From assembly GCA_021798985.1 (NCBI GenBank), contig JAJZBI010000003.1:60861-124860 (forward strand): DNA of 64,000 nucleotides, in the 5' to 3' direction. The notes below the pieces were generated by a model, which was given only the letters and a program-made list of their open reading frames with translations, was not told the origin of the DNA and did not search any database. Below are positions 54,696-56,358 of the stretch, one piece after another. How positions within the stretch are numbered: position 1 is the stretch's first letter; each line of letters begins with the position of its first letter. A program made the position numbers and the translations under genes. The DNA is from Actinomycetes bacterium. GTDB taxonomy: Bacteria; Actinomycetota; Acidimicrobiia; Acidimicrobiales; Bog-793.

Positions 54696-54726
54696 CCGAC
54701 GGGCTGTGACTCTCATGATGGTCAAG

Positions 54727-54905
54727 TCCCGGGAACGGGAGCTTGGCCTGACCCGAAGCGTGTGACTGGCTTCGTGCCTTGTCGTGTGATCTGTCGGTCG
54801 AGCTCTCGTCCCGAGAACGCGCACCAGCCGGTCGGACGGACGTGACCTGATAGGAGCCTTGGCCAGCACCATGAGAGTCCTGTCCGCCGTCCCGGCCGGT
54901 GGTGC
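54727..54905 (+). ncRNA. Candidate bridge RNA in the IS110 left end
   Basis: Structure seen: hairpin TCCCG-GGAA-CGGGA (54727-54740); hairpin CGAAGC/GCTTCG (54754-54759 with 54769-54774); short hairpin TCTCG/CGAGA (54804-54816). A long stem follows, with GCACCA (54821-54826) pairing TGGTGC (54900-54905), CGGAC/GGAC segments (54833-54841) pairing GTCC segments (54882-54892), and a 40-nt internal loop. In that loop, GATAGGAGC (54849-54857) equals the right end at 56191-56199, and CATGAGAGTC (54870-54879) is the reverse complement of the left end at 54708-54717. This is the arrangement of left and right donor guides in IS110 bridge RNAs. The target-binding loop would be 5' of it, about 54750-54815. 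RNA ends are approximate. Confidence 0.6.
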
Positions 54906-54932
54906 CAACCCCATCGGCGACGAGGAAGGCCA

Positions 54933-56186
54933 ATGACCAGCATGACAAGGACGAGCCGGGTTGTCATCGGCGGGGTGGACACCCACAAGGATGTCCACGT
55001 CGCGGCGGTGGTCGACGAGGTCGGCAAGATCATCGACACGGCGAGCTTGGCCACGAGCGCGAAGGGCTGCAACGAGCTTCTCGCGTGGATGCGCTCGCAC
55101 GGTGAGCTCGCGAAGGTCGCTGTCGAGGGCACCGGCTGCTATGGCGCAGGCCTCGCCCGGCTGCTCGAGGACGAGGGCGTCGAGGTCGTCGAGGTGAACC
55201 GGCCGAACCGCCAGGCCCGGCGCCGGCGGGGCAGGTCCGACACCGTGGACGCCGAGGCAGCGGCGCGTGCCGCGCTCAACGGCGAGGCGACCGTGGCACC
55301 GAAGGCCAAGACCAGCGTCGTCGAGTCGATCCGGGTGCTGCGCGTCGCCTTCACCTCGGCGCGCCGGGCCCGCACCCAGGCGGCACTCCAGATCCGGGAT
55401 CTCATCGTCACCGCCCCCGACGAGTTGCGTGCGGAGCTCGGGTCGCTGTCGAGCGCCGATCGGGTGGCTCGCTGTGCGCGCTTTCGTCTCGGAGTGGACG
55501 CCTCCGAGCCGCTCGCGGCGACCCGGGTCGCCCTTCGCACGCTCGCCCGTCGCTACGAGGCGCTGAGTGAGGAGATGGGCGGGCTCGAACAGCACCTCGA
55601 CGAGCTGACCGCGAAGGCCAACCCGGTGCTTCGCGGCGTGAAGGGCGTCGGGGTCGACGTCGCCGCCATCTTGCTCACCGCGGCGGGCGAGAACCCTGAT
55701 CGCCTGCGTAACGAGGCGGCGTTCGCCGCCCTCTGTGGCGTCTCGCCCGTGGAGGCGTCCTCCGGCAAGGTCGTCCGCCACCGGCTCAACCGAAGTGGCA
55801 ACCGCCAGGCGAACCACGCCCTGTGGCGCATCGTCATGGTGCGCCTCACCTGCGACGAGAGGACGAAGACCTATGCCGCTCGCCGACGCGCCGAGGGCAA
55901 GTCCGACCGTGACATCGTCCGCTGCCTGAAGCGCTACGTCGCCCGCGAGGTCTTCCGCCACCTGACCGCCCCGGAGACCATCCCCGCCGGCGAGGAACTC
56001 CGTGCTGCACGCCAAGGCGCCGGTCTCAGCCTCGCCATCGTCGCCCAAGCCCTCGGCACCTGGCCGATTCGCATCTCTCGCCTCGAGCGCTCTCTTGACT
56101 TCGACACGGCGCTCGCCCGTCGCTACGAGGCCTTCCTCGCCGCCGAGCTCGATGCCGGTGCCCGCCAGGAGGAGAATGCCGCTTGA
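54933..56186 (+). CDS. IS110-family transposase (bridge-RNA-guided recombinase type)
   Basis: 417 residues. The RuvC-like DEDD N-terminal domain has D16 in G-G-V-D-T-H-K-D, E65 in V-E-G-T-G-C-Y-G and D103/D106 in R-S-D-T-V-D-A. A coiled coil follows (about 180-215). The Tnp domain starts near L-R-G-V-K-G-V-G-V with the Gly-rich L-C-G-V-S-P-V and S-S-G-K, and the serine region N-R-S-G-N-R-Q. After about residue 345 there is an extra helix-turn-helix-like segment (A-A-R-Q-G-A-G-L-S-L-A-I-V-A-Q-A-L). ATG 54933 is used; a second ATG lies three codons later. The reading frame is intact, so the element may be active. Confidence 0.92.
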   Translation: MTSMTRTSRVVIGGVDTHKDVHVAAVVDEVGKIIDTASLATSAKGCNELLAWMRSHGELAKVAVEGTGCYGAGLARLLEDEGVEVVEVNRPNRQARRRRGRSDTVDAEAAARAALNGEATVAPKAKTSVVESIRVLRVAFTSARRARTQAALQIRDLIVTAPDELRAELGSLSSADRVARCARFRLGVDASEPLAATRVALRTLARRYEALSEEMGGLEQHLDELTAKANPVLRGVKGVGVDVAAILLTAAGENPDRLRNEAAFAALCGVSPVEASSGKVVRHRLNRSGNRQANHALWRIVMVRLTCDERTKTYAARRRAEGKSDRDIVRCLKRYVAREVFRHLTAPETIPAGEELRAARQGAGLSLAIVAQALGTWPIRISRLERSLDFDTALARRYEAFLAAELDAGARQEENAA

Positions 56187-56358
56187 CAACGATAGGAGCA
56201 TCGCGCTGCGGGATCCCGCGTGCGCGCAGATCCGTACGCGCGGCGGCGCTCCGGCGCAACTTCACACCCTCTTCTCAGTTTCTCGTACCCCTGCACCCAG
56301 CTGAGCGCGAGACGATGCCCTATCGGGGGCCGTGCGGGGCGCGGGCCGCGGCCCGCTC

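What the first reader, a model, noticed from the sequence alone, without database searches (positions are those of the whole stretch)
54708..56199. Decoded bridge-RNA logic in an IS110 element
The left non-coding end folds into a 5' hairpin, a first loop region and a second long stem-loop. In the second loop, GATAGGAGC (54849-54857) copies the right end (56191-56199) and CATGAGAGTC (54870-54879) is the reverse complement of the left end (54708-54717). Nine and ten exact matches in the expected order and polarity (left donor guide same strand, right donor guide complementary) fit the donor-binding loop of an IS110 bridge RNA, and they locate the element ends. GA is shared by both ends and is a candidate core. 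In the upstream loop, TGTGA and GCTC could be short target guides for the sequence ...TGT-GA-GC... that would exist without the insertion; these matches are short and only suggestive.
Basis: partly seen in the sequence, partly recalled or inferred. Interest (0 to 1): 0.88.

Follow-up and report, generated by a model that had tools for sequence, protein, structure and literature searches.

The report
IS110 jumping gene with guide RNA
This is a bacterial jumping gene of the known IS110 family whose own RNA names both the element's ends and its landing site; comparing it with dozens of relatives shows which RNA letters read which DNA and corrects where the element really ends.

Summary
Both donor-guide matches are exact; shuffles of the left end give both in 1 of 2000. 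A 42-pair two-loop RNA is conserved in 17 relatives (model hit 54739-54905). Tests over 39 left and 34 right ends fix the guides: LTG GCGTGTGA 54758-54765, RTG GTCGTGTGAT 54781-54790, LDG 54849-54857, RDG 54870-54879; observed pairing exceeds all 20,000 permutations. 'GA' at 54708-54709 is target DNA, read by the handshake bases of the RDG. The right end runs two bases further ('AT'). Only one base, C, is shared by the two junctions (30 of 30 elements; the next base agrees in 7 of 30, chance 8.8). Four relatives sit in an IS3 transposase gene whose motif is restored only if one C is shared. Joined ends give TTGACA-17 bp-CATGAT. The recombinase keeps the catalytic residues and has an extra C-terminal HTH domain. 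Side finding: in two other branches of this clade the bridge RNA sits in the right end. New member of a known kind.

The parts
   Evidence: in relatives inserted in an IS3 gene the equivalent bases are target coding sequence
54710..54711 (+). left junction core: C (shared) plus donor base T; first bases of the element
   Evidence: RDG core guide equals the left core in every one of 39 unique left ends; position 8 C shared in 30/30
54712..54717 (+). right donor sequence CTCATG at the left end
   Evidence: complement of RDG CATGAG
54714..54719 (+). -10-like box CATGAT of the promoter formed when the ends join in the circle
   Evidence: 17 bp from TTGACA across the junction; constant in most relatives
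54739..54905 (+). bridge RNA core: target-binding stem-loop then donor-binding stem-loop
   Evidence: covariance model R1 162.3 bits (the window is in the training set); 42 pairs, 20 with double changes
54758..54765 (+). left target guide GCGTGTGA (followed by CT 54766-54767)
   Evidence: 6 of 8 to own left flank; 225 matches over 39 relatives against permuted mean 110, maximum 149
54781..54790 (+). right target guide GTCGTG-TG plus handshake bases AT
   Evidence: pairs with AT-CGCGCTGC 56200-56209 using G.U pairs, 7 of 8 beyond the handshake; 34 relatives 168 exact against mean 95, maximum 128
54849..54857 (+). left donor guide GATAGGAGC (then C, mismatched, and T, matched)
   Evidence: copies 56191-56199; covaries with RE in relatives
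54870..54879 (+). right donor guide CATGAG-AG plus handshake bases TC
   Evidence: complement of 54708-54717; handshake against target positions 6-7: 64 matches, permuted mean 43, maximum 55
54933..56186 (+). IS110 recombinase gene, 417 aa: RuvC-like DEDD domain, Tnp domain with serine 277, C-terminal XRE-like HTH (about 353-416)
   Evidence: PF01548, PF02371, NF033542; residues; AF2 model mean pLDDT 88.6 and Foldseek hits to IS621
56183..56188 (+). -35 box TTGACA; overlaps the recombinase stop codon TGA 56184-56186
   Evidence: conserved in most relatives' right ends
56191..56201 (+). left donor sequence at the right end: GATAGGAGC-AT
   Evidence: AGGAGC-NTC conserved in relatives
56202..56209 (+). 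right junction: shared C (56202) plus target base G, then right target half-site

Best explanation
A 1.5-kb IS110-group insertion sequence. Excision as a circle (inferred) joins the right end to the left end and so creates a promoter (TTGACA-17 bp-CATGAT) that would transcribe a bridge RNA of about 170-180 nt from the left end. In the donor-binding loop the LDG reads the bottom strand of the right-end sequence and the RDG reads the top strand of the left-end sequence. In the target-binding loop the LTG and RTG read the two halves of the chromosomal site. The last two bases of RDG and RTG match the partner DNA (target positions 6-7 and donor positions 6-7), as the handshake guides of IS621 do. 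The DEDD/serine recombinase would then exchange strands at one shared C. Shown by sequence comparison: guides, handshake bases, junctions, promoter spacing, RNA structure. Inferred from IS621/ISEc21: RNA production, circle formation, recombination and present activity.
For: LTG-LT, RTG-RT, RDG-RD, core and handshake pairing each exceed all 20,000 permutations among relatives. RDG core guide equals the left core 78/78 bases in 39 elements. A single shared C restores GDSYDN(A/S)(L/M)xES in four IS3 genes. Structure with covariation. Promoter spacing across the circle junction. Protein families, catalytic residues, fold.
Against: The window's own target guides match less well than average (LTG 6/8; RTG 4/8 exact, 7/8 with G.U). 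No empty site for this locus was found: the 35 relatives searched hold no close copy of the right flank. Only one full copy in the genome. No RNA data.
Confidence: 0.93

Rival explanations
1. One reading: the core is GA, and TGTGA (54785-54789) and GCTC are the target guides.
For: GA occurs at both ends (54708-54709, 56196-56197) and the RDG match includes it.
Against: GA is target coding sequence in relatives; other elements have AA, AC or GG there, and AA and AC are read by changed handshake bases; 'TGTGA' lies inside the RTG; the true LTG lies upstream and covaries with the left flank.
Confidence: 0.02
2. The core is a normal dinucleotide (C plus one base), as in IS621. The second base differs between donor and target, and the mismatch is resolved after strand exchange.
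For: RDG and RTG each carry a guide base for position 9 that matches donor (30/30) or target (26/30); IS621 works with a two-base core (PMC11208158).
Against: Positions 9 of the two junctions agree no more than chance (7/30, expected 8.8), with the donor base on the left and the target base on the right, so the second base need not be shared.
Confidence: 0.4
3. A decayed copy that no longer moves or makes a guide RNA.
For: Single copy, imperfect target guides.
Against: Intact reading frame with catalytic residues, intact donor guides, intact promoter halves.
Confidence: 0.2
4. The left-end RNA is only a regulatory leader of the recombinase gene.
For: The RNA ends just upstream of the gene's ribosome-binding region.
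Against: Loop bases covary with DNA outside the element on both sides.
Confidence: 0.02

Closest known systems
IS621 (IS110 group) bridge RNA and recombinase, PMC11208160 and PMC11208158
   Same: Left-end bridge RNA with target loop before donor loop; LTG/RTG/LDG/RDG order and polarity; handshake bases; promoter formed at the circle junction; RuvC plus Tnp-serine recombinase (Foldseek 8wt9).
   Different: Shared core is one C, not CT; LDG has a conserved mismatch at donor position 6; no separate 5' stem-loop found; recombinase longer, with a C-terminal HTH; RTG pairing longer than four bases.
ISEc21 / IS1111 seekRNA elements, PMC11187229
   Same: RNA from a non-coding end with two short segments that read the two target strands.
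   Different: IS1111 carries the RNA mostly downstream of the gene and has subterminal inverted repeats; the window's element carries it upstream.
ISCro4 transposase (PDB 9t56)
   Same: Similar fold; solved as a bridge-RNA synaptic complex.
   Different: Weak sequence similarity only (E 3e-11).

Membership tests
IS110 family | N-terminal RuvC-like DEDD domain (PF01548) | tested here: met
   E 1.5e-19; D16, E65, D103, D106 present
IS110 family | C-terminal Tnp domain (PF02371) with catalytic serine | tested here: met
   E 9.9e-18; S277 aligns with IS621 S241
IS110 group | Bridge RNA in a long left non-coding end, short right end | tested here: met
   223 nt left end, 15 nt right end; model hit 54739-54905
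IS110 group | Donor and target loops that pair with both DNA strands | tested here: met
   permutation tests over relatives
IS110 group | -35 and -10 boxes brought together in the circle | tested here: met
   TTGACA-17-CATGAT; sequence only, circle not shown
IS621-type core | Identical dinucleotide core at both junctions, included in all four guide pairings | tested here: not met
   only C shared, 30/30; next base 7/30
IS1111 group | Bridge RNA in the right end | tested here: not met
   right non-coding end 15 nt
IS1111 group | Subterminal inverted repeats of 7-17 bp | not tested
   not searched for systematically
IS110 family | Guide RNA is made and directs recombination | not testable with these tools
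   needs RNA-seq and a recombination assay

The most novel reading that the evidence does not exclude
In this actinobacterial clade of IS110 elements strand exchange needs only one shared base, C. The bridge RNA moved from the left to the right end of the element at least twice, by copying followed by decay: several relatives carry RNA-model hits at both ends, and right-end elements keep a guide-less relic of the donor loop on the left.
Probability: 0.55. Interest if true: 0.6.

Novelty: new member of a known kind. Interest (0 to 1): 0.42.

Why it matters
Bridge RNAs are being developed as programmable recombination tools. This clade gives more than 40 naturally reprogrammed elements with readable guides, natural covariation for the handshake bases, and a core that seems to need one shared base instead of two, which would loosen target constraints if confirmed. 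The relatives with RNA at both ends bear on how the IS110 and IS1111 arrangements arose.

Tried and rejected
The search for related loci with the protein found only one relative in genome contigs and none in viral contigs. Rfam has no bridge-RNA family hit: the only match, PtaRNA1, lies on the other strand far below its cutoff. A single-sequence fold pairs the RDG with the element's own left end and hides the loops; the alignment fold was used instead. The right flank has no close copy in relatives, so no empty site for this locus. A pattern for uninterrupted IS3 genes in the relatives' genomes found none; the reading-frame test replaced it. My first register for RTG was one base off and gave no signal (right side); corrected. 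An early idea that the 5' guide of the target loop reads the right flank was dropped once the LTG was located upstream.

Full report
What was checked. In 2000 shuffles of the left-end interior only one had both a 9-base same-strand match to the right end and a 10-base complementary match to the left end. The gene 54933-56186 is an IS110 recombinase (PF01548, PF02371, NCBIfam 'IS110 family RNA-guided transposase').

Relatives. Whole-genome searches gave one full copy in the own genome plus remnants on two contigs, and relatives of 45-74% identity in many genomes of the same order and class.

Guide assignment. I aligned the left ends of 54 relatives, cut out the four guide regions, located left ends by the right donor guide alone, and compared each element's guides with its own flanks, using the flanks of other elements as the control. 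Left target guide against left flank: 225 matches over 39 unique elements, permuted mean 110, highest of 20,000 permutations 149. Right donor guide: its core bases equal the left core in all 78 positions; its last two bases match target positions 6-7, 64 against mean 43, maximum 55. The left ends were located with a string that includes the core and handshake bases of the RDG, so those two RDG counts are partly favoured by the search; the LTG and RTG counts are not. Right target guide against right flank: 168 exact matches over 34 elements, mean 95, maximum 128; its last two bases match donor positions 6-7, 64 against mean 52.7, maximum 61. Long single cases: L059 TGGTCCCG both in guide and flank; L077 GCGTGAAA; L051 CAACGCAA; L010 ACACCAAC. 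The two trailing bases of RDG and RTG behave as the handshake guides described for IS621 (PMC11208158). In the window they are TC, reading the target's GA, and AT, reading the right end's AT.

Core. In 30 elements with both ends known, C at position 8 is shared by both junctions in 30, while position 9 agrees in 7 (8.8 expected); the left junction has the base that the RDG predicts in all 30, and the right junction the base that the RTG predicts in 26 of 30. Four relatives (L031, L033, L034, L035) lie in an IS3 transposase gene: the motif GDSYDN(A/S)(L/M)xESxNG is restored in frame when the flanks are joined with exactly one C; joining with none or with the extra core bases destroys one side of it. 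So the shared core is one C, in contrast to the CT of IS621. Whether the enzyme still cuts two bases apart is not decided by this.

RNA structure. RNAalifold on 17 left ends gives two stem-loops whose internal loops hold the four guides. With the guide-guide pairs removed, 42 pairs are 94.4% paired, 20 have changes on both sides (9.0 in shuffles), and slid controls fall to 26-46% paired. A covariance model finds the RNA in the window at 54739-54905 (162 bits; the window is in the training set) and in relatives not used for training, e.g. L037 149, L060 134 bits.

Promoter. Joining right and left ends gives TTGACA-17 bp-CATGAT here, and CATACT, GATAAT or CATTAT at the same spacing in many relatives. 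The recombinase stop codon TGA overlaps the -35 box. The -10 box is only 4 of 6 to the sigma-70 consensus.

Protein. D16, E65, D103, D106 and S277 are present. An AlphaFold model (mean pLDDT 88.6) matches IS621 in complex with bridge RNA as the best solved structures. The extra C-terminus is a helix-turn-helix domain: HTH_31 or HTH_3 in 19 and 14 of 29 relatives scanned, confident helices 353-416. On the tree the extension needs two changes. I found no description of it in the held papers (for the main paper); its role is unknown, autoregulation being my guess.

Side finding. Model hits fall downstream of the gene in two groups of relatives that the tree separates. Holding all right-end elements as one clade is rejected (AU p 0.003; the group was named with knowledge of the data, so this is indicative). 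Their right-end RTGs match their flanks (46 of 72 against mean 23.8, maximum 40; guides were picked by eye for some). Model hits at both ends occur in L022, L025, L095, L096, L097, L152, L132 and L151. In L132 the right-end LTG matches the left flank AAAACGTAC over nine bases and the left-end one does not (read from the sequences). Left ends of most right-end elements keep the outer arms of the donor loop. The seekRNA paper already noted IS110 members with a downstream or double non-coding region (PMC11187229), and the bridge-RNA paper proposed a translocation between ends (PMC11208160); guide pairing and relics are what is added here.

Limits. No empty site for this locus; the window's own target guides match moderately; no RNA or activity data; many genomes searched are in many contigs, and several element ends are cut by contig ends.

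Noticed in passing
L022, L095, L096, L097, L152, L132, L151: IS110 relatives with bridge-RNA model hits in both the left and the right end; in the L022 group the left copy keeps a target loop, but its donor loop is replaced by a plain hairpin.
   Followed up: partly
L052, L054, L055, L057, L082 and L008, L016, L019, L025, L032, L053, L080: Two separate branches with the bridge RNA in the right end and, in most, a guide-less relic on the left.
   Followed up: partly
window 55989-56183 (residues 353-417): XRE-like helix-turn-helix domain fused to the recombinase; also in a second, separate branch (L014, L015, L017, L048, L070, L071).
   Followed up: partly
window 56183-56188: The recombinase stop codon TGA lies inside the -35 box TTGACA of the circle promoter, also in many relatives.
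   Followed up: partly
G000 contig C56 (L004) and C45 (L002, L003): Remnants of two other IS110 elements in the same genome: one with its guide RNA in the right end, one split by other DNA.
   Followed up: no
L006, right end: The right end is present twice in tandem (TTGACATAGGAGCGAGTTAGTTGACATAGGAGCGTC), perhaps from two insertion events at one site.
   Followed up: no
L050 2575-2907, L078 2474-3020: Two bridge-RNA model hits in a row in the left end of two sister elements.
   Followed up: no
L037, L039 left ends: Left end longer by about 130 bp between the promoter half and the bridge RNA.
   Followed up: no
left flanks of L001, L006, L013, L037, L040-L042, L063-L065, L068, L069: The close clade inserts next to GGGTGTGA or a near match in many genomes; what this target is was not identified.
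   Followed up: no
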